Below, in pieces: positions 1 to 21,256 of a DNA stretch of 36,963 nt. The DNA is from Lachnospiraceae bacterium (lineage in GTDB: Bacteria > Bacillota > Clostridia > Lachnospirales > Lachnospiraceae): NCBI GenBank assembly GCA_017484135.1, contig JAFUTQ010000038.1, positions 1-36,963 of the forward strand, in the 5' to 3' direction. The notes under the pieces are model-generated. The model saw only the letters and a program-made list of their open reading frames with translations, had not been told where the DNA came from and did not search any database. The translations under genes were made by a program, and so were the position numbers. Numbering within the stretch: the stretch's first letter is position 1; each line of letters starts with the position of its first letter.

Positions 1-583
1 CATCCATCAAAAAGGGTGATTTCGAGGGTGTAAGGTGGCAATATCAGACACCTTTCTGGTGAATTGCTACCATATATTTTTAAAAAATAGTCGGAAAACA
101 GATTATCGATGATATCGGTTAATTAATCAGCGTTTCCTTAAAACATAAATGAAAAAAGTGTCACAAATTTGTATTTCCTGAGTTGTTCTTTATGAAGGGA
201 CTTGCTGATTCGTGAAAAACTGTACAAGAAATTGATAATCACGCAGAAATAACAAATCCGAAGAAAATGTACAGATGTTTGGTCATAGTAACATTTAAGA
301 AGGATGACTGTCTGGGAGGCATCATTTTTCACTATTCCGAAGTTCGAAAAAAGCAGAGTCGGAAAATTCAACAGCAAAGCAAACAATAGAACAGACTGCT
401 TTGCAACAGGAAACAGAGAAGGAAAAGTATGGAGACGGAATTAGAAGCGATCCTTCCTATGCTGGAACCACAGATAAGCGAGATTGATTGTAAAGTCAAG
501 ACTCAAGTTTACTCTCCCCCCAGGAATGATTACCGGTATTAACTACAGAAAATTCTGCTATTGGAGGATAGAAAGGAAAGAAT
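1..583. other. Gene-poor leader with degraded sequence
   Basis: No convincing complete gene is visible here. Positions 34-71 form an imperfect inverted repeat (GGTGGCAAT paired with ATTGCTACC). An open frame without a start codon runs from about 308 to 487 and encodes a Lys/Glu/Gln-rich stretch, which could be the tail of a decayed gene. A 37-codon frame with an ATG lies at 429-542 and is listed separately. The sequence is AT-rich compared with the core genes further right, which fits accessory DNA. The promoter of the gene at 584 should lie here, but I see no consensus -35/-10 pair that I would defend. Confidence 0.5.
429..542 (+). pseudogene. Short ORF, possible truncated gene start
   Basis: This is a 37-codon frame starting METELEAILP and ending NDYRY before a TAA. 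A purine-rich stretch (AAGGAAAAG) sits just upstream and could serve as a ribosome-binding site. The sequence reads like the N-terminus of a longer soluble protein cut short by the stop at 540-542, with the next gene starting 41 bases later. I do not recognise the family. It could be a genuine small protein, an upstream leader peptide for the 584 operon, or a remnant. Confidence 0.25.
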
Positions 584-1324
584 ATGATTAGGGAATATTT
601 AAGTTCTTTGGAAAAAAATTACGGTTACATAGGAAACTGGCAGCCGGATTGTCCTATTCAGGTAGGAAACTGGGCAGACGTAGAACTTGGTTTTCTGCCG
701 TGGTTGAAAGATTGTTTGGGCATAAGCAATAAGCATTTGGAAATTAATAAAAATCTTCATAGTGTCATGTCGGGAAAGCTTGAGAATATCGAAGTGAAAA
801 AAGAAAAACGAACCGCTCTTACGCTGTCACATAATGTTTCGATCAGCATGTCTGAATCATGTGGGACTGTCAGCATAAAGGCAAAAAAAGCGGGCGGTTT
901 TTTTGCAGTCTTTCAGGATGTACATGAAATAAACGCAGAGCCCGTATCCTTTCGAGACAATCTGGAGAAGCTGCATAAAACGTCCGTTGCAGTTGTATCG
1001 GGGGTTACCTATGTGAAAAAGGGAACGCTTGTGATATTTAATCAAGAAACCGCCTCCATCCAATTGGCAGGAAGCTCATCTTCGCTGGCGGCGCTGCTGG
1101 ACAATAAAATCGGGATCAATATGGATTTTGACATTTCCTATGAGTGTGCAGGGTTGGCAATGTATCAGGCGGAGTCAGGAAAACCGCTTGTTCCTTTTTT
1201 GAAGCTTTATATTGCGGAACAGGATAAACAGAACGGATTTCGGGGACAGGCAGCACGCCGGGGGAGAAATTATGATATTATGCCCTTTTCCTATCAGGAT
1301 TTCTTTGAAGCCTATCACGGTTAG
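584..1324 (+). CDS. Unknown 246-aa protein, gasdermin-like candidate effector
   Basis: I do not recognise this family with certainty. The protein has no signal peptide and no obvious membrane helix. The order of elements resembles bacterial gasdermins: a short N-terminal helix and GY motif, a PIQVGNWADVELGFLPWL segment (about residues 24-41), alternating polar/hydrophobic strands, a Ser-rich strand region with SSSSL near residue 166, and a GKPLVPFLKLYIAE strand near residues 198-211. An Arg-rich linker and a 20-residue tail follow, as in a cleavable inhibitory C-terminus. The length fits the roughly 250-270 aa typical of bacterial gasdermins, and the next gene is a peptidase, which is the usual gasdermin arrangement. 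The N-terminal cysteine reported as lipidated in some bacterial gasdermins is absent. The ATG at 584 is preceded by AGGAAAG. The function is inference only; another toxin or a structural partner of the peptidase is possible. Confidence 0.45.
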   Translation: MIREYLSSLEKNYGYIGNWQPDCPIQVGNWADVELGFLPWLKDCLGISNKHLEINKNLHSVMSGKLENIEVKKEKRTALTLSHNVSISMSESCGTVSIKAKKAGGFFAVFQDVHEINAEPVSFRDNLEKLHKTSVAVVSGVTYVKKGTLVIFNQETASIQLAGSSSSLAALLDNKIGINMDFDISYECAGLAMYQAESGKPLVPFLKLYIAEQDKQNGFRGQAARRGRNYDIMPFSYQDFFEAYHG

Positions 1325-1348
1325 GACACAAAAAAGCAGGGACAAAAT

Positions 1349-3529
1349 ATGGCATTTGATTACAGTGACGAAGGAAATTACAGAACATTAAATAAGATAA
1401 GGAATATGGATCCTTACTTAGGGTTGGCTGTTTTTTATTTAAGTCAGTTTTCGGAAAGAGTTATTTTGCCGGATGCAGAAGATATGCTGGAAATAAAGGG
1501 GCGAATCATTCAACCGCGTATTGTATTCCTTGATGATTCTTATCCAATTGTACAGTGCAGGAAACGAATCTTTTCAAGACAAAACAGAATAGAGATTTCT
1601 TATGGTATTTTTGTTATGCTCGGCATGATGGGAGAGTTTGAGAAAACAATCAACACTATGATAGATGACGAGACAAAAAACAATATGATATCTTTTCAGG
1701 ATTTGAGGGAGATGAATATCGATCCTTTAGTACGCTGTGTAAAGGATGCGTTAAATTATCTGAAGCTGTCATATTATGCGATGCCTGATACGGCGCCGGA
1801 GTTGCCCAAAATGACATTGACCTCCTATATTCTTAATGATGCCCTGCAGTTTATTGTAGGGCACGAAATCTCTCATTATGTTGAAATGTATTACAAGTAT
1901 GACAGTCGTGTTGAGCAGCAGCTAGATGTGTTGAATCAATGTATGGTTTTTCTTAGCGCAGTAAAAGGAACGCCGGCAAAATTTTTTGTGGATAAATTTT
2001 TTTCGTATCTGGATACACATCCGGGTGAACAGCTTTACGCTATTTGGAGTGAAGAGGTTCTGGCAGATTATGAAGGTTTTCATTATTTGTGTCCCCATGC
2101 ACCCAGGGGGCGTATTGGCTCACATAAGATTATGGCGGTTAGTCTGGCATTTTTGGTGTTGAAGCTTATGGAATATTTTGAATCAACGCTTCCGAATCCG
2201 CCCCAGGAGTTTGCGGTTCCCGTTAGATGGAGAGAGTTTTTTTTACAATTTATATTGTATCAAAATTATTATTCGGATTATGACTCTTTTGAGGAATTTA
2301 TTGATAATGAATGGGGGCTGAATAGAGCAATCTGTTATTTGTACGAACGCGTCATTATTACGATTAAAGCGGAAACCCCTCCTGACATGGAAGAGGAAGA
2401 GAATATCATGGAAACGGATTCAGAAATTGACAGAGAGTTATCCTGCTGTGACGAATTGATTGAAAAACTACAATCCGTTCAAGCTTCAGAGGCGGAAAAC
2501 ATTTTTCAAGAAATTAAGGAAAGATATGAAAAGCATGGATCAAACAAACAGTTTAAGAGTGCGTTTCCTTTTGATAAGCTGACAAAGATTCTGGATCAGT
2601 TTGGGCACGAGTGTTATGAGCAGACAGAATATGATAAGTCCTATGTGTGGTTTTACCGGGCAACTACGTATTTTGAGGGATCGAAGGACGCACTGACGTT
2701 GCCTGCGGCGGACAGCTATTATTGGCTTGGAAATGCTTGCTATCAAAAGGGACAGTACAGGGAGGCAACATGGTGGTATCGTTGTGCGATAGATATACGA
2801 CAGGAGATACTTGGGTTTTCCTTTGAAGAGAACCTGGAGATATATTTGCATTCTGCCAGAGCGTATATGGAAGCAGAGAATGGGGCTGAGGCAATGGAAA
2901 CGTTTCAAAAAATATGTGAATGTACGAAGGATGATGATATGAAAGCGGAAGCCTATCGCAGTATGGGAATTATATGTGACAGGCAAGGGGATAATCAGAG
3001 GGCTTTGGAGTTCTTTTTTCAAGCATTGGATATTAAGGATAGCAAGTATGGGATGGGGAATCTTGATTCTGCGACACTGTATAACAGCATAGGAATCATA
3101 TACAGCAATCAAGAGAAATTTACTGAGGCTGAAAAGTATCTGATGCTTGCTTTGCAGATAAAGCGTGATTGTATGGATGAGAAGGCTTTGTCTCTTATGA
3201 ATACCATGTACAGCTTGGGAATGCTGGAGGCAAGGAGAGGCTGCTGGCAGAAAGCGCTGGATTGGTATCAGATTGTACTGGATGTTCGAATGGAGGTCCT
3301 GGGGGAGAGACACCCACGGGTTGCAGATACGCTTCAGGCGATAGGTGGAGCATACTATGTAAAAAAAGACTATGGAGAGGCTCTGGCATACTATCAACAG
3401 GCATTCGTAATTTATAAAAATATATATGGAAAAAAGCATGAGCAGACGCTAAAAACAGAGCAAAATATAGCAATACTGAAAAAGATGCTTTCTTTAAAAT
3501 ATGATGACAAAAATGGTAATCTGTGTTGA
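1349..3529 (+). CDS. HEXXH metallopeptidase with C-terminal TPR array
   Basis: The N-terminal half carries a zinc-binding motif, GHEISH (HEXXH at residues 172-176). A second motif follows at about 234-240, SEEVLAD, which matches the E-x-x-A-D third-ligand helix of gluzincin-type peptidases. A hydrophobic stretch near 262-275 is more likely part of the fold than a membrane segment. From about residue 430 to 720 there are several tetratricopeptide repeats of the kinesin-light-chain type, with YYWLGNACY, LYNSIGIIY and LQAIGGAYY cores. The protein is therefore probably a soluble protease with a protein-sensing solenoid. It begins 24 bases after the 584 gene and is almost certainly co-transcribed with it. 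The pairing suggests that it processes or activates the upstream protein in response to something the repeats bind. The substrate and the trigger are unknown. Confidence 0.7.
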   Translation: MAFDYSDEGNYRTLNKIRNMDPYLGLAVFYLSQFSERVILPDAEDMLEIKGRIIQPRIVFLDDSYPIVQCRKRIFSRQNRIEISYGIFVMLGMMGEFEKTINTMIDDETKNNMISFQDLREMNIDPLVRCVKDALNYLKLSYYAMPDTAPELPKMTLTSYILNDALQFIVGHEISHYVEMYYKYDSRVEQQLDVLNQCMVFLSAVKGTPAKFFVDKFFSYLDTHPGEQLYAIWSEEVLADYEGFHYLCPHAPRGRIGSHKIMAVSLAFLVLKLMEYFESTLPNPPQEFAVPVRWREFFLQFILYQNYYSDYDSFEEFIDNEWGLNRAICYLYERVIITIKAETPPDMEEEENIMETDSEIDRELSCCDELIEKLQSVQASEAENIFQEIKERYEKHGSNKQFKSAFPFDKLTKILDQFGHECYEQTEYDKSYVWFYRATTYFEGSKDALTLPAADSYYWLGNACYQKGQYREATWWYRCAIDIRQEILGFSFEENLEIYLHSARAYMEAENGAEAMETFQKICECTKDDDMKAEAYRSMGIICDRQGDNQRALEFFFQALDIKDSKYGMGNLDSATLYNSIGIIYSNQEKFTEAEKYLMLALQIKRDCMDEKALSLMNTMYSLGMLEARRGCWQKALDWYQIVLDVRMEVLGERHPRVADTLQAIGGAYYVKKDYGEALAYYQQAFVIYKNIYGKKHEQTLKTEQNIAILKKMLSLKYDDKNGNLC

Positions 3530-3530
3530 T

Positions 3531-4901
3531 TTAGAAGCTTCTGAAATCTGCAATGCACTCGTCGATACTCGGATATAGCGCATAGTTTGCGCAGCCGATT
3601 CGCTTCATTACGGACTCGATCTGTCGCTGATCACTATCGCTGAAATATGAAATATGCCACTTGGCATCGGCGGTTCTTTTTTCATGCCCGCCATCGATAT
3701 AATCTGCGAGCTGAAGCACCGATGCACACTGTGCGCTTTCCGAAATCTCCGATATCCCCTTAATGGTGATTAATTCCTCCAACACTTCCTTTGTTCGTTT
3801 GGCCTGCTCAAGAATAAAACGCTGATGTACCGCTTCTTTGGCTTTTTTTTCTGTTTCTCCCGTATATGGGTTCTCTGTTCCAAGAATAGCTTTTTCAAGC
3901 ATTTCATGCTTCGGAAATGAAATGTCCGCCATGCCCAATTCCCGTTCCCGATGGTGCTGCGCATATAACAGGTTTAATCGGATCATGTCAAACAAACTGT
4001 GCTCCGTCATGTGATCAAGCCCCATATGGTGCGCCTGCCATAATGCGGACAGTTCGTTATAATTACAACCGGTTTTTGTCACTCTGCTGAGAAAATCAAA
4101 GTATTCAAAATCCGGTTCTCCAAATGAATGACCAAGAACATAGATATTTTCAATATCCTCGATGTGCACGCCGTCAAGGGTCATAAACTCGCACAAATCA
4201 TCAATATTATCCTGCACATGCTTATCTGTATCATATAAGGCAGATTCAATCAGATATAGTCCTCTAAGTCGTTTGCTTTTCCCTCCTCCGACGCGGCGAA
4301 TGAACCTCTGTTCCATCAGCTCCGGGAAAGCCATTTCAGGATGTGTTGCATGTCCGAAAATAAGCGTCTCCGGATCGCTTGCCTCTCCGTGTATATGATA
4401 GTCCACGGTTTGATCTACACCAAACCGCTTCTCCAAGGTATCTGTATAATTGAAATTGATAAAATAGCAGGTCTCATCAAATTTGAATCCCGAATCCAAA
4501 GTGTCTATTTTGATGGATGTAACCCAGTCGCTGAAGGCTTTTTGTAAGATGATGCTTGCCTGTTCAACGGTCTCCTGCAGCTGATACACCCCTTGATCCG
4601 TTTTTCCAAAGTACAGATTCAAATTTTGATCATCAATCAATGCCATGGATGTTTCAAACGACCAGAAGAACTCATCTTTCAAAGAAGAAGGATGAAATGC
4701 ATCTCCGTATACCAATTCCACAGGAGTAATCGTCTTGGAATCTTTTGAACCATAGGTTTGAAATCCGAGATCGCGTACGATCTCATCAATATGCTTGTAA
4801 TAATATTTCCGAAATTCCTCATATGAGGTCGGTAAATTTTGCCATCGATCAAATCCGTTTCCAATGATCACGAAATTCCGAAACTTACTTTTTTTCGGCA
4901 T
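3531..4901 (-). CDS. AbiH-family abortive infection protein
   Basis: This is a 456-aa member of the AbiH family of phage abortive-infection proteins. The family signature is clear: an N-terminal VIIGNGFDRW (GNGFD at residues 14-18) followed by PTSYEEF (24-30), then FNYTDTLE (150-157), HIHGE (169-173) and GHSFGEPD (257-264) before a helical C-terminal part. I chose the start at 4901 because AGAGGTGG sits five bases upstream; an in-frame ATG at 4928 has a poorer site. A promoter on the same strand lies at 4994-5022. AbiH was described in Lactococcus as stopping phage propagation; its biochemical activity is not settled. The gene converges on the 1349 peptidase gene with one base between the stop codons, so no independent terminator fits between them. 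Confidence 0.88.
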   Translation of the reverse strand: MPKKSKFRNFVIIGNGFDRWQNLPTSYEEFRKYYYKHIDEIVRDLGFQTYGSKDSKTITPVELVYGDAFHPSSLKDEFFWSFETSMALIDDQNLNLYFGKTDQGVYQLQETVEQASIILQKAFSDWVTSIKIDTLDSGFKFDETCYFINFNYTDTLEKRFGVDQTVDYHIHGEASDPETLIFGHATHPEMAFPELMEQRFIRRVGGGKSKRLRGLYLIESALYDTDKHVQDNIDDLCEFMTLDGVHIEDIENIYVLGHSFGEPDFEYFDFLSRVTKTGCNYNELSALWQAHHMGLDHMTEHSLFDMIRLNLLYAQHHRERELGMADISFPKHEMLEKAILGTENPYTGETEKKAKEAVHQRFILEQAKRTKEVLEELITIKGISEISESAQCASVLQLADYIDGGHEKRTADAKWHISYFSDSDQRQIESVMKRIGCANYALYPSIDECIADFRSF

Positions 4902-4993
4902 ATATCCACCTCTCTGTCTCTTCTGCATTGTTTATTTTGTCCTTTAAAAATCATGATACGCTCAATCATTCCGGAAATAATACTGTCATGAGC

Positions 4994-5022
4994 ATGATAA
5001 AACAAAGAATACTGTTTTTCAA
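4994..5022 (-). promoter_or_regulatory. Sigma-A type promoter for abiH
   Basis: On the minus strand TTGAAA (5017-5022) is followed after exactly 17 bases by TATCAT (4994-4999). It lies about 95 bases upstream of the AbiH start codon. The region is AT-rich and contains several TCATGA-like repeats that could hold an operator. Confidence 0.5.
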
Positions 5023-5082
5023 TGATAATTTGTTAAGAATCAAAAAATATTGCTCGACTTGAAGCAATAATACCGAAGCAGA

Positions 5083-5113
5083 GCACCCTCACAGCCCCAA
5101 GCTGTCGGGGTGC
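5083..5113 (-). terminator. Hairpin downstream of the integrase remnant
   Basis: GCACCCTcACAGC pairs with GCTGTcGGGGTGC around a CCCAA loop, giving a long GC-rich stem directly after the integrase stop codon. A strong U-run is missing on both strands, so it may be a weak terminator or a structural 3' end rather than a classical intrinsic terminator. Confidence 0.45.
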
Positions 5114-5122
5114 CCTCTTAAA

Positions 5123-5798
5123 TCAGATATGAAAATGATTCCTCGGATGCTTTGTGGCAAGAATGTTTCTTTGGTTTTCTACTGCTACATGGGTATATAT
5201 TTCAGTAATATGGATGGAACTATGTCCCAGCATTTCCTGAATGTATCGTATGTCAACATCGGCCTCTAAAAGGCTTGTTGCAAAGGTGTGACGGAACATA
5301 TGCGGTGTAATGTGCAGTTCAATGGAAGCAAGAGAGGTGTATTTATTTATCATCCTTCGAACTGCCTGATCAGTCAAAGCCCTGCCGGATTGATTTGCAA
5401 AAAAGTGATTGCAGGAGAGAATTTGGTGCTCAAACGCAGCTTGATATTTTTTTAAAATATCAAGGACGGCTTCATTGCCGATTTGAATACGGCGTTCCTT
5501 ATCCCCTTTGCCATAGATCAGAATGGTTCCGTCATATAAATTCACATCCTTGCAGGTAAGTGCGCACAGCTCGGAAATCCTCATGCCGGTGGCAAATAAA
5601 AGCTCTGCGACAGCGGCATCTCTTAAAGCATTCCGTTTCTGATAATTGGTTTTTGCATGTTTCTGTTGGTTGTAAATTTCGGACAGAAATATCTCAACCG
5701 TATGTAAGGGTATGGTTTTTGGCAATATATTCCTCCAAAGCTTGAGAGGTGATTTCGGTTACCTCTTTCGGAAGAATTTGCTCGCTGAATTGCTCCAA
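5123..5798 (-). pseudogene. Tyrosine recombinase with internal deletion
   Basis: The long frame (5123-5725) encodes an intact XerC/D-type catalytic domain. Counting from the TTG at 5725, the residues are Arg49 in GMRISEL, Lys73 in YGKGDK, His142 and Arg145 in HMFRHTF, His168 in LGHSS and Tyr177 in YTHV. The N-terminal core-binding (SAM-like) domain is absent. Directly upstream in another frame (5694-5798) lies LEQFSEQILPKEV followed by ALEEYIA, which reads as the first 25 or so residues of the same kind of integrase. The two frames meet near 5725, as expected if roughly 60-80 codons were deleted with a frame change. AAAGGAG precedes the remnant start, immediately after the serine-recombinase stop. 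The catalytic part might still be made from the TTG, but it would lack DNA-clamping ability. Confidence 0.75.
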
Positions 5799-5808
5799 AT
5801 CTCCTTTG

Positions 5809-6413
<605 letters not shown>

Positions 6414-6434
6414 ATGAGTTCCTCCGATTTCTGT

Positions 6435-6508
6435 ATTTTGGCAAAAAAAAGAAACAGAGCGATAGATAAGCAGTTCCGTTCTGTTTTCTCTTTTAAGCTT
6501 GCCAAAAT
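6435..6508. repeat. Inverted repeat upstream of the resolvase
   Basis: ATTTTGGCAA (6435-6444) and TTGCCAAAAT (6499-6508) are perfect 10-base inverted arms separated by 54 bases, just upstream of the serine-recombinase start. Resolvases of this type often act at, or are repressed from, paired sites in their own upstream region, so this is a candidate recombination or operator site. Function is inferred from position only. Confidence 0.35.
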
Positions 6509-6566
6509 GTTCTTCGGAATATATTTCGCAATACATTAGATGAGTTGCGTTTCACGATGGGAACCT

Positions 6567-7001
6567 TTACAGGTATGCCCGCATGTCCTTGCCCAGCTTT
6601 TCTTCGATTTGTGCCAGGCGACCGCACAGAGCCTTGGACAGTTCGTCTGCCTTTGGATATTGATTGAGAAACCGGTGCAGGGATTTGATGCCCATATTGC
6701 AGCCATCGGTGATCAGATCTGCTACCGTAGAATCGCTGTTGTCCAAAGACATTTTCACATTCGTCTTTATCCACGACATGCTCTTGGCGATTGCACCCGG
6801 CTCTTTTTCATCGCTGTGATGCTTGTCCAGCGCTTCTTCTATTTCATTGCCGAGCTTCTCATGATGCTCCCGGCTTTCCACCAGAATTTCTTTAAGCTTT
6901 GCATCACAAACCTTTTCCATGACCTCATCAATGGATTCCACCGCCATGGCGGAACCGGCTGCACATTCCCGTAATAAATTTACTGTATCGTTTTGTTCCA
7001 T
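6567..7001 (-). CDS. DUF2383-like helical bundle protein
   Basis: This 144-aa soluble protein is predicted to be almost entirely helical, with no signal peptide. The pattern of His, Glu and Asp in long amphipathic helices (VESREHHEKLGNEIEE near residues 40-55, and DGCNMGIKSLHRFLNQY near 100-116) resembles the ferritin-like DUF2383 group found in many Clostridia. I base this on sequence style and have not confirmed it by search. The start at 7001 has a good AGGAGG site. It sits between the recombinase remnants and tspO and is transcribed away from tspO, so it may mark the return to core chromosome. No specific function can be assigned. Confidence 0.65.
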   Translation of the reverse strand: MEQNDTVNLLRECAAGSAMAVESIDEVMEKVCDAKLKEILVESREHHEKLGNEIEEALDKHHSDEKEPGAIAKSMSWIKTNVKMSLDNSDSTVADLITDGCNMGIKSLHRFLNQYPKADELSKALCGRLAQIEEKLGKDMRAYL

Positions 7002-7150
7002 ACAGACCTCCTACTATTTTTTTGTTATACGTAGTATGCCCGGCAGAAAAAATTTTATGTCTGATGGGAATGGTTTGGAATTTTTGAGGTTCTGAGCGGC
7101 GAAATTCAATCATAGGTATAGAAAAGAGCTTTTAGTTTGGTGAGAAAACT

Positions 7151-7633
7151 ATGAAACAGGACGAAAAGAGCACACTTTTATTATGCCTTGTAATACCAGT
7201 GGCGGTGGGGTCTGTTGCAGGAGCCTTAACCAGTCAGAGTATGAGAATTTTTTCCCGGTTGAATCAGCCGTCGTTTTCACCGCCGGGATGGCTGTTTCCG
7301 GTGGTGTGGACCATACTGTATCTGTTGATGGGGCTTGCATCCTATCTGGTACTGACCTCGGATGCATCCAAACAGGATATCCGGCGTGCCATGCTTTTGT
7401 ACGCAGCCCAGCTGGTGGTCAATTTCTTCTGGTCACTCATTTTTTTCAATCTGGGGAACTATTTGTTTGCATTTGTATGGCTGCTGTTGCTGTGGGTTCT
7501 TGTCCTGCTTACGACCTGGCAGTTTTCGAAATGCTCAAAGACAGCAGCATATCTGATGATTCCTTATATTCTATGGATCACTTTTGCGGCATTTCTGAAT
7601 TATATGATTTATATATTGAATGAAACGGCGTGA
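7151..7633 (+). CDS. tspO: TspO/MBR family membrane protein
   Basis: This 160-aa protein has five hydrophobic segments, the size and topology of TspO (tryptophan-rich sensory protein). Family motifs are visible: LNQPSFSPPGWLFPVVWTIL near residues 36-55, YLLMGLASYLV, and LVVNFFWSLIFFNLGNYLFA near 92-111. TspO proteins bind porphyrins and related ligands, and their bacterial role is thought to involve tetrapyrrole or stress responses. The ribosome-binding site is weak (GGTGAG). The gene is divergent from the 7001 gene and stands alone, with degV following after a promoter-containing gap. Confidence 0.92.
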   Translation: MKQDEKSTLLLCLVIPVAVGSVAGALTSQSMRIFSRLNQPSFSPPGWLFPVVWTILYLLMGLASYLVLTSDASKQDIRRAMLLYAAQLVVNFFWSLIFFNLGNYLFAFVWLLLLWVLVLLTTWQFSKCSKTAAYLMIPYILWITFAAFLNYMIYILNETA

Positions 7634-17935: not shown

Positions 17936-20900
17936 ATGATACAGAAATATTACAAAAGTATGCTGGCACAGGTATACAAAAGGGTGGGGTACTCGGCGCA
18001 CAATATGGTTCTTGCAAAGTATAGCAATGATCTTTCGATTGAAGATCTGAAGCTGGAGGAGGAAGGCAGGGCATATACACACATACGTTTTGTGGGCTAC
18101 GAGTTCCGAAAAGAGGAAATTGCCGGGGCGTTTGAACCTTTTATGGGCATGATGAGGGATATTTTCCGGAATTATCATGCGGATTCCCTGGATGAAATCA
18201 TGGAGAAGTGCAATGTGTACAAACCGTTGCGGCCCATATTTGCTTCGTATTTTAAGACAGGAAGATGTGAGCGGGTGGAGCCTCTTTTGTACAATGAAAC
18301 GGATTATGAAAAGACCCGTATGATGGATGCGGTGCTGCAAATGCTCATTGCGTTGTCAAAGGATTGCCCTTTTGTGATTGTCATCAACCGGGTGCAGCTG
18401 GCCAGTTATACCACGATTCGGCTGTTGAAAAGATTGCTTTCGGCGGAGGACACCAAGAATATCGGGGTTCTGCTGGGGACGAATGAGCTGCAGCGCGTGC
18501 CGGAGTATATTGAACCGGCGTGGACAGAGCTGATTGAGGAGCTGGGAGAGCGCTCCTGCGCGATCAACATAGGAAATGCTGTTCCGAAGGAGGAAAACGA
18601 AGAAAGTACAGAACACAACAACTATCAGGAGGATCTCAGGATCCTGCGCAACAGCCTGTTGTTCATGGATTTTCGTCAGACGGTTCATGGACTGGAGCGG
18701 ATTGATCGCAGAATCCGGTTTGAAAATCAAAAGGTTTCAGCAAAAAACAGGTTTGAGATCTGGTATTTGTATGCGAATGTATCGATTTATATCCGGGATC
18801 TCCCCAAGGCGCTGGAAATCAGTGAGGACATCCGCAGATTGGATGCCCAGGAGCTGCTTGCAGAGGGGGAGAGAAGGAATCCGGAATATTACTACTATAT
18901 CATTACTTCTACGGCATACATGTACCAGAATAAGCTGGAGGAGGCGATCCGGGGTGCCAAGAAAGCGGCAGAGCTGGCCGGAGGAGACGAACGACTGCTT
19001 TTTGAGGCGGAGCTTCTGGAGACACAGGCGAAGATGTCAGGCTGGGACAACGTGTTTTTCTGTACCCGGGATATTGAAAACAGTCAGGAATTGATCGAAC
19101 GGCTGCTCAAATATAACTACCTGAATCATTTGGCATACATTTATATTTTCGCCTATGACAATGATCCGGAGATTGTAGCGCAGGCTGACACTTCGGAGAA
19201 CAAGCTGACCCATTTCAGCAAAGGAATCAAGCTGGCCAGAGAAAATGGAAATGAGCGGCTTTTGTATAATGCTTATCAGAAAAATATTATGCTGGGAGTG
19301 GCAAACGGACTGTATCATATCGGAATTTTATATACGGTTCGAACCTTTGAAGAATTGTCGGACAAAAATTCCATGGAAGCCGGACGGGCATATTCGGCAA
19401 TTGGCTATGACCTGAGTTCCATGGGGAGAAATGAGCTGGCGACAGAATACTTCGTTGCGGCCAATAATCTGTTCTACGAGCTGAATCTGCCTGAGGATAT
19501 TGCGGAAGTATATTACAATATGGCGCAGAATTATATTGACATGGATCGCTTTGAAGAAGCGGCTGCTTATCTGCAGCGTTGTCTGCATATTGCCGATAAG
19601 CTGAATATGAACAGTCTGCGGGTGTGCAATCTGTCCAAACTGTTTATTCTGCTGGCGCTCTGCAATCAAATGCAGGGGAACCGGATCCAGTGTGACCAGT
19701 ATATGGAACGGTGCAAACGTTTTCTGGATTTTATTGTTGTACGGGATAAGGAGCTGGAAGCATCGGATATCAGTCACGATTATGTAAAATATGAGGATGA
19801 CAAGTTCCTTTATCTGTTTACACTGGCCCTGACACAGATTGAAGACGGGGAAAACGAGAAGGCAATGGAGAATTTGGAGCAGGCCGAGGTGCACTTCCGG
19901 CGGACGGAAGGGACGATGTACTTCTGCTATCGCCTGTTTTGTACCGTCAAGGGAGATCTGTACGAAAAAACAGGGCTCTCGGAAAAATATGAGGCAGTAC
20001 AGAAGCTTCTGGAGAAGCATCAGCAAAAACGGCGCAAGCAGGCAGATAAGATCAAAATGAAAACCTTGAAGCCGTTGGAAGCTTATCGCATGGAATGCAT
20101 GGAGAACAATGTGACGGAGCAGCAGATTGAGCTTTTGATTCACCAGGAGAGCATTCGCAGAGCGTATCTTCGGGAACATCGGCAGATGCAGTTTGTATCC
20201 ACATGGCAGAAGCTGATGGATGTGTCCAACGTCTCATCTACGGAGAGTTCCTTTGACAATACGATGCAGACCTTTATGTATCAGTTTAATCTGGACTGTG
20301 CCATGTATGTTCAGTATCGCAACCGTCTGCCGCGTGTCTTGTACGACAATACGGATGTAGAAATTTCGGAGGAAATTCTGGATTCCTTCCGGAAAATTTT
20401 TGAAAAACGGCGAAAGGGATTTGTGGTCTCGAAGATCAGTGCCAACTATGCCGAGCATCACAATGTGATGAAGTGGTTTGATGAGGATCGGATTTGCTCC
20501 ATGGTGGCGGTTCCCTTCTTTGACGACGGCAGGCTGACCAGTATCATGATTGCTTACATACGGATGAAGGACAATTGGCATTCGTCCGTGAATCGCTATA
20601 TGCTGGATGAGGAAGACCTGAACATGTATGAGATGCTGTTTCGGGATGTGCAGTATGCCATGAATCGTCTGGAGGCCTATGAGCGGATTTATGAGATGAA
20701 TCAGTTGCTATATAAGTCGGCGGTAACTGATCAGCTGACCGGTGTAATGAACCGGAAGGGCTTTTACGAAAAAATCGCAACACTCGTGGAGGAGGCTAAG
20801 CAGGGAAAGCGCGAGAAGAAATTCGGCATCATGTTTATCGATCTGGACAATTTCAAGGGATATAATGATACCTTCGGACATGATATCGGGGATCTGCTGC

Positions 20901-21256
20901 TGGTGTCCATGGCGCACATTTTTGAAAAGATTTCCCTCGCCAATGGCTTTGTGGTTCGCTGGGGCGGAGATGAGTTCCTCATTCTCATGTATACGGATGA
21001 CCGGAAAAGTCTGGAGAAATATGCAAAGCAGATCTACTCGGAGGTCCGGGCGCATGACAGCTTTAAGGGAGCGATTGAGAATGCCACCGGAATGACCATT
21101 GAGATTGAGGAGGGTAAGGAGTTGTCCTGTTCCATAGGTATTGTATCCTCTGACTCTGTGGAAAATGAGGATGACATTGAATCCATGATTATGCAGGCAG
21201 ATGATCTGATGTATGATGTAAAAAAACATTCCAAGGGAACGTATAAGTTTATATAA
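17936..21256 (+). CDS. TPR regulator with degenerate ATPase and GGDEF domain
   Basis: This 1106-aa cytoplasmic protein has three parts. Residues about 50-210 resemble the ATPase module of MalT/AfsR-type regulators: PFVIVINRVQLA (145-156) sits where the Walker B strand and loop occur, but Asn-Arg replaces the acidic pair and no Walker A loop is present. Residues about 230-720 are helical TPR-like repeats (AAAYLQRCLHIADKLN, AMENLEQAEVHF). A GAF-like segment (about 760-920) precedes a diguanylate cyclase domain with DQLTGVMNRKGF, IDLDNFKGYND and an intact GGDEF at 1010-1014. The RxxD inhibitory site is replaced by LANG, so product inhibition is unlikely. The start has an in-frame stop nine bases upstream. 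It probably makes cyclic di-GMP in response to a bound ligand or protein; its position after the maltodextrin genes is suggestive only. Confidence 0.85.
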   Translation: MIQKYYKSMLAQVYKRVGYSAHNMVLAKYSNDLSIEDLKLEEEGRAYTHIRFVGYEFRKEEIAGAFEPFMGMMRDIFRNYHADSLDEIMEKCNVYKPLRPIFASYFKTGRCERVEPLLYNETDYEKTRMMDAVLQMLIALSKDCPFVIVINRVQLASYTTIRLLKRLLSAEDTKNIGVLLGTNELQRVPEYIEPAWTELIEELGERSCAINIGNAVPKEENEESTEHNNYQEDLRILRNSLLFMDFRQTVHGLERIDRRIRFENQKVSAKNRFEIWYLYANVSIYIRDLPKALEISEDIRRLDAQELLAEGERRNPEYYYYIITSTAYMYQNKLEEAIRGAKKAAELAGGDERLLFEAELLETQAKMSGWDNVFFCTRDIENSQELIERLLKYNYLNHLAYIYIFAYDNDPEIVAQADTSENKLTHFSKGIKLARENGNERLLYNAYQKNIMLGVANGLYHIGILYTVRTFEELSDKNSMEAGRAYSAIGYDLSSMGRNELATEYFVAANNLFYELNLPEDIAEVYYNMAQNYIDMDRFEEAAAYLQRCLHIADKLNMNSLRVCNLSKLFILLALCNQMQGNRIQCDQYMERCKRFLDFIVVRDKELEASDISHDYVKYEDDKFLYLFTLALTQIEDGENEKAMENLEQAEVHFRRTEGTMYFCYRLFCTVKGDLYEKTGLSEKYEAVQKLLEKHQQKRRKQADKIKMKTLKPLEAYRMECMENNVTEQQIELLIHQESIRRAYLREHRQMQFVSTWQKLMDVSNVSSTESSFDNTMQTFMYQFNLDCAMYVQYRNRLPRVLYDNTDVEISEEILDSFRKIFEKRRKGFVVSKISANYAEHHNVMKWFDEDRICSMVAVPFFDDGRLTSIMIAYIRMKDNWHSSVNRYMLDEEDLNMYEMLFRDVQYAMNRLEAYERIYEMNQLLYKSAVTDQLTGVMNRKGFYEKIATLVEEAKQGKREKKFGIMFIDLDNFKGYNDTFGHDIGDLLLVSMAHIFEKISLANGFVVRWGGDEFLILMYTDDRKSLEKYAKQIYSEVRAHDSFKGAIENATGMTIEIEEGKELSCSIGIVSSDSVENEDDIESMIMQADDLMYDVKKHSKGTYKFI

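What the first reader, a model, noticed from the sequence alone, without database searches (positions are those of the whole stretch)
584..3529. Possible gasdermin-like effector paired with a TPR metallopeptidase
The 246-aa protein has the size and element order of bacterial gasdermins (VGNWADVE-type segment, Ser-rich strand region, GKPLVPFLKLY strand, short tail), and the next gene 24 bases away is a peptidase. Known bacterial gasdermin operons (established knowledge) place the pore-former beside an activating protease, usually caspase-like or trypsin-like. A gluzincin-type HEXXH protease in that role would be unusual. Family membership is inferred by eye and could be wrong.
Basis: partly seen in the sequence, partly recalled or inferred. 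Interest (0 to 1): 0.85.

Follow-up and report, generated by a model that had tools for sequence, protein, structure and literature searches.

The report
Gasdermin-like protein beside TPR metallopeptidase
A bacterium carries a two-gene unit that looks like a cell-suicide switch: a remote relative of the gasdermin pore proteins next to a sensor-like protease of a class not usually seen beside gasdermins.

Summary
P1 alone hits no Pfam, PADLOC, NCBIfam or PDB gasdermin. It does belong to an unnamed family (8 intact relatives fetched): 23.9 bits against a profile built without P1, reached by 0 of 20,000 shuffles. That family is remotely related to bacterial gasdermins: its P1-free 8-member profile finds one PDB sequence of 177,635, gasdermin 7N50, E 0.0038; profile-profile E 2e-5 and 7e-4. 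Its genes lie beside or near caspase-type proteases in 5 of 8 loci clearly and 2 of 8 probably. So the gasdermin reading is supported, through intermediates. The HEXXH partner is the odd part and is seen at one locus only. Likely mechanism: TPR sensing, P2 cuts off P1's short aromatic tail, P1 forms pores, the infected cell dies. Fold (prediction switched off), cutting, pores and defence are untested. Most likely a new variant of the bacterial gasdermin-protease system.

The parts
584..1324 (+). P1: divergent gasdermin-like protein, 246 aa, proposed autoinhibited pore former
596..667 (+). P1 N-terminal family signature (Y5, GY14-15, W19-x-P21, G28)
   Evidence: alignments; Y5, W19 and G28 invariant in 9 of 9 sequences
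1232..1270 (+). P1 residues 217-229, basic Gly/Arg-rich stretch before the tail; proposed protease-sensitive loop
   Evidence: sequence; role is inference
1271..1321 (+). P1 residues 230-246, aromatic C-terminal tail with S-Y-x-D-F; proposed autoinhibitory peptide
   Evidence: motif in P1 and 4 of 8 relatives, 0 of 373 comparison open frames; pattern written after seeing the sequences; role is inference
1349..3529 (+). P2: HEXXH metallopeptidase-like domain plus TPR repeats, 726 aa, proposed sensor-protease
1862..1876 (+). P2 HEISH motif (residues 172-176), proposed zinc site
2051..2068 (+). P2 EEVLAD (residues 235-240), candidate third zinc ligand region
   Evidence: ligand role inferred from gluzincin families (recalled)
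2600..3493 (+). P2 TPR region (approximate limits)
3531..4928 (-). AbiH-family gene, convergent neighbour; context only, not part of the proposed unit
   Evidence: Pfam PF14253 E 4.3e-32, PADLOC AbiH 3.9e-21

Best explanation
The two genes form an abortive-infection (cell-suicide) unit. P1 is a divergent gasdermin held inactive by its own short aromatic C-terminal tail. P2 is a sensor-protease: its TPR half senses or binds an infection cue and its HEXXH half is switched on and cuts P1 in the basic stretch before the tail. Freed P1 inserts into the inner membrane as an oligomeric pore and kills the cell before phage release. Shown: the gene pair, P1's family, the family's remote relation to bacterial gasdermins, the caspase-type neighbours of most of the family members examined, the HEXXH/TPR anatomy of P2. 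Inferred: fold, autoinhibition, cleavage site, pore formation, trigger, defence role.
For: P1 to family: 23.9 bits (single-test E 1.5e-9) against a 5-member P1-free HMM; 0 of 20,000 shuffles reach it (12,134 got a score, best 10.7); hhalign E 2.4e-5. With 8 members 19.4 bits, 0 of 20,000 shuffles (11,027 scored, best 7.7), hhalign E 3.5e-4. Only hit of the 5-member profile in P1's own genome, but weak (E 0.118, N-terminal 34 positions only). Family to gasdermin: P1-free 8-member profile finds one PDB sequence of 177,635 at E<=10, gasdermin 7N50, E 0.0038, 24-171 on 26-182; 9 members with P1, only hit, E 0.049; 5 members, top of 2 hits, E 0.031. hhalign to four bacterial gasdermins E 2.2e-5 (5 members) and 6.7e-4 (8 members); 300 column shuffles each never above score 19.2 against 41.4 and 32.6. 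Only PADLOC family listed for 6 members: bGSDM, 1 of 6, E 0.0031; only NCBIfam family listed: prok_gasdermin, 1 of 6, E 0.14. Neighbours: CHAT adjacent or next-but-one in 4 of 8 loci, C14 caspase near plus annotated CHAT further off in 1, CHAT-like partner in 2. Context: AbiH and recombinase genes beside the pair, lower GC.
Against: P1 alone matches no gasdermin model or structure (hhalign E 0.48). A 6-member profile ranked an unrelated PDB entry (3PIG, E 0.015) above 7N50 (E 0.28). Adding members lowered the profile-profile scores. Single family members against the gasdermin profile are at noise: of 5, only one (24.5) beat the best of 250 comparison open frames (21.9). The 5-member HMM scores 7N50 at 17.5 bits, barely above search-selected frames (16.9), and the other three gasdermins lower (6.5, 3.9, -2.3); with P1 in the HMM 7N50 (14.8) falls below two of them. 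P1 has no N-terminal cysteine (first Cys at 23), unlike most bacterial gasdermins. No fold was predicted. The P1-P2 pairing is seen once, no homologue of P2's peptidase domain was found, and P2's proteolytic activity rests on a motif.
Confidence: 0.7

Rival explanations
1. P1 is a gasdermin relative, but P2 is not its activator: the pair is a loose neighbourhood in a defence island, and P1 is triggered otherwise or is a relic.
For: One locus only; no second pair found; P2 has no detectable peptidase family.
Against: 24-base spacing on one strand; relatives of P1 sit beside or near caspase-type proteases in 7 of 8 loci (2 of these only probable), two of them fused to TPR repeats and one with a separate TPR gene.
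Confidence: 0.15
2. The family is a non-pore substrate, adaptor or regulator of TPR proteases; its resemblance to gasdermins is coincidental.
For: P1 alone shows no gasdermin signal; single members are near noise; curated gasdermin cut-offs are not reached.
Against: In 3 of 4 profile searches of the PDB a bacterial gasdermin was the only or top match (second), collinear over about 150 residues; same size and short-tail layout.
Confidence: 0.12
3. P1 and P2 are a toxin-antitoxin or peptidase-inhibitor pair with P1 the inhibitor of P2.
For: Two adjacent genes in a mobile, AbiH-containing region.
Against: Relatives of P1 sit with quite different proteases (CHAT, C14), which fits a common substrate better than a specific inhibitor.
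Confidence: 0.03

Closest known systems
Bacterial gasdermins (bGSDM; PADLOC PDLC02986, NCBIfam NF051890; solved 7N50, 7N51, 7N52)
   Same: About 250 aa, no large C-terminal domain, short C-terminal tail, profile homology detectable through the family, protease-like gene beside it.
   Different: P1 has no match in the curated models; no N-terminal cysteine; partner is HEXXH-TPR rather than caspase-like or trypsin-like.
Fungal gasdermin-protease clusters (HET-Q1/HET-Q2 and TPR-CHAT pairs; passages read in PMC10989679 and PMC12881547)
   Same: Two-gene unit; protease fused to repeats such as TPR, WD40 or ANK; a short C-terminal fragment is removed.
   Different: The proteases described are S8 subtilase-like or CHAT; the words metallo and metalloprotease do not occur in those texts.
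CHAT proteases beside P1-family genes in actinobacteria (Embleya L019, S. avidinii L020, Streptomyces NRRL S-244 L022)
   Same: Caspase-type protease with TPR repeats in the same protein (L019, L020) or in a separate gene (L022), next to a P1-family gene.
   Different: Cysteine protease of caspase type instead of HEXXH.

Membership tests
Bacterial gasdermin (bGSDM / prok_gasdermin) | Curated profile match (PADLOC bGSDM, NCBIfam prok_gasdermin) | tested here: not met
   P1: no match. Positive control 7N51: 1.5e-83 and 3e-68. Of 6 family members scanned, 1 weak match in each library (0.0031 and 0.14).
Bacterial gasdermin (bGSDM / prok_gasdermin) | Sequence homology to solved bacterial gasdermins | tested here: inconclusive
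   Not for P1 alone. For its family profile without P1: 7N50 the only PDB match, E 0.0038; hhalign E 2.2e-5 and 6.7e-4; single members near noise.
Bacterial gasdermin (bGSDM / prok_gasdermin) | Gasdermin N-domain fold (twisted antiparallel sheet) | not testable with these tools
   Structure prediction switched off.
Bacterial gasdermin (bGSDM / prok_gasdermin) | Short C-terminal autoinhibitory peptide, no large C-terminal domain | tested here: inconclusive
   Size and tail fit; tail motif shared by P1 and 4 of 8 relatives. Autoinhibition not testable.
Bacterial gasdermin (bGSDM / prok_gasdermin) | N-terminal cysteine that carries palmitate (majority of members, PMC9612521 passage) | tested here: not met
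   First cysteine of P1 is residue 23. Not universal, so not strictly defining.
Bacterial gasdermin (bGSDM / prok_gasdermin) | Encoded beside an activating protease | tested here: inconclusive
   HEXXH-TPR gene 24 bases downstream; activation untested, protease class differs.
Bacterial gasdermin (bGSDM / prok_gasdermin) | Proteolysis-dependent membrane pores | not testable with these tools
   Needs experiment.
P1 family (unnamed; relatives in L017-L020, L022, L039-L041) | Profile match and shared N-terminal signature | tested here: met
   Y5, W19, G28 invariant in 9 of 9.
Gluzincin metallopeptidase (P2) | HEXXH plus downstream Glu ligand in a known family | tested here: inconclusive
   Motif present; no significant family match, M48 E 0.2.

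The most novel reading that the evidence does not exclude
A family of gasdermins, not recognised by current gasdermin models, is run mostly by CHAT or caspase proteases, often with TPR repeats, and in this genome the protease module is a zinc metallopeptidase while the TPR sensor layout is kept: a metallopeptidase-fired bacterial gasdermin.
Probability: 0.5. Interest if true: 0.85.

Novelty: new variant of a known kind. Interest (0 to 1): 0.7.

Why it matters
If true, gasdermin activation would not be tied to caspase-, trypsin- or subtilisin-like proteases, and a group of gasdermins would be hidden from the HMMs used to annotate defence systems (6 members scanned: none above a curated cut-off or with a strong match). 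It gives a direct test of the idea that the protease module of a gasdermin system can be exchanged, and it links bacterial TPR-protease/gasdermin units to the TPR-CHAT/gasdermin pairs of fungi.

Tried and rejected
Direct homologue hunts. No confirmed relative of P1 in genome contigs, viral contigs, plasmids or phages; none of P2's peptidase domain in viral contigs or plasmids (at E up to 10 eight Azospirillum records at E 0.8-3). The genome search: P1 in 61 relatives (2 matches, own and G045) and 391 class genomes (4 matches, own and three weak); P2 domain in 299 family genomes (own only) and 392 order genomes (own and five weak). I looked at all four weak P1 loci (L002, L004, L005, L006): by my reading SecA, a transcriptional regulator, a surface protein and an unrelated lipoprotein. 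I looked at two of the five weak P2 loci (L011, L014): a GGDEF-type and an HsdM-like protein; the other three were not opened. Of the eight Azospirillum records I fetched three; one is annotated argininosuccinate lyase and one reads like it. All taken as chance.

Profile searches. With the 6-member profile, 391 class genomes gave own and a 26-residue stub; 398 phylum genomes gave own and four matches at E 0.004-0.017, which I saw only as high-scoring comparison frames. Those search-selected frames reach 16.9 bits on the 5-member HMM and 17.1 on the 6-member one, so single-sequence HMM scores for the gasdermin link (7N50: 17.5 and 14.8) prove little; P1 (23.9) stands above them. In hhalign of 250 comparison frames against the 5-member profile the best were 34.1 (L028, one of those selected loci) and 26.7 (L020); P1 scored 41.5. 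I did not rerun these frames on the 8-member profile, where P1 scores 33.4.

Other dead ends. Viral-contig scans with family members and phages: nothing. Viral contigs with a bacterial gasdermin: nothing. A PDB search with one partner C-terminus hit linker-rich entries. The G1401 member is a truncated N-terminal piece; it is in the 4-of-60 genome tally but left out of the profiles and the neighbour counts. The S-244 C7 and G1427 partners were missed by a small CHAT HMM and count as probable only (hhalign E 5.8e-4). No prok_gasdermin match in the own genome, which is 83% complete. Promoter-like sites in 1-6600 are near chance (23 against 16.4, sd 4.3).

Paper searches: (all 10 allowed). No title or abstract opening in these listings points to a bacterial gasdermin-metallopeptidase pair; most listed papers, also those holding both words, were not opened, and only open-licence PMC text is held. 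Opened: PMC9079055 (whole text); passages of PMC9612521, PMC10989679, PMC12881547, PMC10907252.

'Gut-type' was dropped (habitat never tested), near-noise controls were added, and TPR and paper statements were narrowed.

Full report
Observation. Two genes on the + strand, 584-1324 (P1, 246 aa) and 1349-3529 (P2, 726 aa), are separated by 24 bases. P2 has HEISH at residues 172-176, EEVLAD at 235-240 and a TPR C-terminal half. Downstream and convergent lies an AbiH gene, then a partial tyrosine recombinase. GC is 0.395-0.437 over 1-7500 and 0.45-0.52 after, as in an acquired island (inference).

P1 by direct search is an orphan. No match in Pfam, PADLOC or NCBIfam, no gasdermin in the PDB at E up to 10, one non-significant PHROG (E 0.071). 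PADLOC and NCBIfam recognise a solved bacterial gasdermin strongly (1.5e-83 and 3e-68), Pfam weakly (2.5e-4, below its cut-off).

Finding the family. These found each other and Streptomyces avidinii, then Streptomyces NRRL S-244, and by profile three more intact members, a second gene in the S-244 genome and one each in G1427 and G1451, plus a truncated one in G1401. In 60 genomes of that order 4 carried a match, the S-244 genome included.

P1 belongs to it. Against a 5-member HMM built without P1, P1 scores 23.9 bits; none of 20,000 shuffles reaches it (12,134 scored, best 10.7); hhalign E 2.4e-5 over 182 columns. With 8 members: 19.4 bits, best of 11,027 scored shuffles 7.7, hhalign E 3.5e-4. 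In its own genome P1 is the only match of the 5-member profile, at a weak E of 0.118 over 34 N-terminal positions. Identity to relatives is 12-18%, with Y5, W19, G28, V138 and P204 invariant in 9 of 9. P1's tail (PFSYQDFFEAYHG) resembles those of G1427 (PVSWDEF) and S-244 C7 (PLSWAEF); the pattern, written after seeing these, is in P1 and 4 of 8 relatives and in 0 of 373 comparison open frames, many of them not genes.

The family and gasdermins. PDB searches with family profiles: 5 members, top of two hits 7N50, E 0.031; 6 members with P1, second at E 0.28 behind a fructofuranosidase at 0.015; 9 members with P1, only hit, E 0.049; 8 members without P1, only hit, E 0.0038, residues 24-171 on 26-182. 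Profile against profile with four bacterial gasdermins (one partial): E 2.2e-5 with 5 members, 6.7e-4 with 8, 1.1e-4 with P1 added; 300 column shuffles each time stayed at or below 19.2, against 41.4 and 32.6; reversed profiles gave 14.3 and 18.4. One of six members hits PADLOC bGSDM (0.0031) and one of six NCBIfam prok_gasdermin (0.14), in each case the only family listed; Pfam lists none.

Against this: P1 alone gives nothing (E 0.48); of five single members only one (24.5) beat the best of 250 comparison frames (21.9) against the gasdermin profile; and the family HMM scores three of the four gasdermins below search-selected unrelated frames, the fourth (7N50) barely above them, or below two of them when P1 is in the HMM. 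The link is therefore good for the family profile, weak for single sequences and indirect for P1.

Neighbours of the 8 intact relatives. Clear caspase-type proteases in 5: Embleya (CHAT with TPR, adjacent), S. avidinii (CHAT with TPR, adjacent, divergent), S-244 C18 (TPR gene then CHAT gene, same strand), G1451 (CHAT directly downstream, home-made HMM), Mesorhizobium (C14 caspase-FGE one gene away; a gene annotated CHAT further off on the other side). Probable in 2: S-244 C7 and G1427 share a 57.6% identical downstream partner whose C-terminus aligns to CHAT at E 5.8e-4, score 35.2 against at most 25.1 in 150 shuffles. Gemmatirosa has no CHAT or C14 hit; its upstream gene shows only a transglutaminase-like trace (E 0.023). 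No HEXXH partner like P2 was noticed beside these relatives; the Embleya CHAT protein does hold a chance-level HExxH string.

Mechanism. In bacterial gasdermins a neighbouring protease removes a roughly 20-residue C-terminal peptide and frees the pore former (passages of PMC9612521 and PMC10989679). P1's layout, a core to about residue 211, a basic stretch 217-229 and an aromatic tail 230-246, fits this. P2 pairs a putative protease with TPR repeats, as TPR-CHAT proteases do in two relatives and in fungi (PMC12881547 passages). I therefore propose TPR-controlled cutting of P1 by a metallopeptidase, pore formation and abortive infection. Every step after the family assignment is inference.

Limits. 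One locus; no fold; no P2 homologue; no experiment. The P2 peptidase call is motif-based. Apart from a 26-residue stub, no P1 relative was matched in 390 other class genomes by profile, and no P2-domain relative in 298 other family genomes. The window starts at a contig end, so a further upstream gene of the unit could be missing.

Noticed in passing
window 3531-4928 (-): AbiH-family gene convergent with the pair; one base separates its end from P2's stop codon.
   Followed up: partly
window 5123-5725 (-): Tyrosine recombinase, C-terminal part only (200 aa, aligns to about positions 101-300 of XerC/XerD models).
   Followed up: no
window 5809-6536 (-): Two overlapping ORFs that read like one resolvase broken by a frameshift (by eye).
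   Followed up: no
window 17936-21256 (+): 1106-aa protein that by eye combines an ATPase-like N-terminus, helical repeats and a GGDEF-like C-terminus.
   Followed up: no
L042:7552-7980 (G1401): Truncated member of the P1 family: only about 47 N-terminal residues match.
   Followed up: partly
L018 (Mesorhizobium plasmid): P1-family gene lies between a C14 caspase-FGE gene and a gene annotated CHAT, with a QueC-like and an ASCH gene alongside.
   Followed up: partly
L017:3465-4892 (Gemmatirosa plasmid): Gene upstream of the P1 relative looks TIR-like at its N-terminus (by eye) with a transglutaminase-like trace (E 0.023); a possible cysteine-protease partner.
   Followed up: partly
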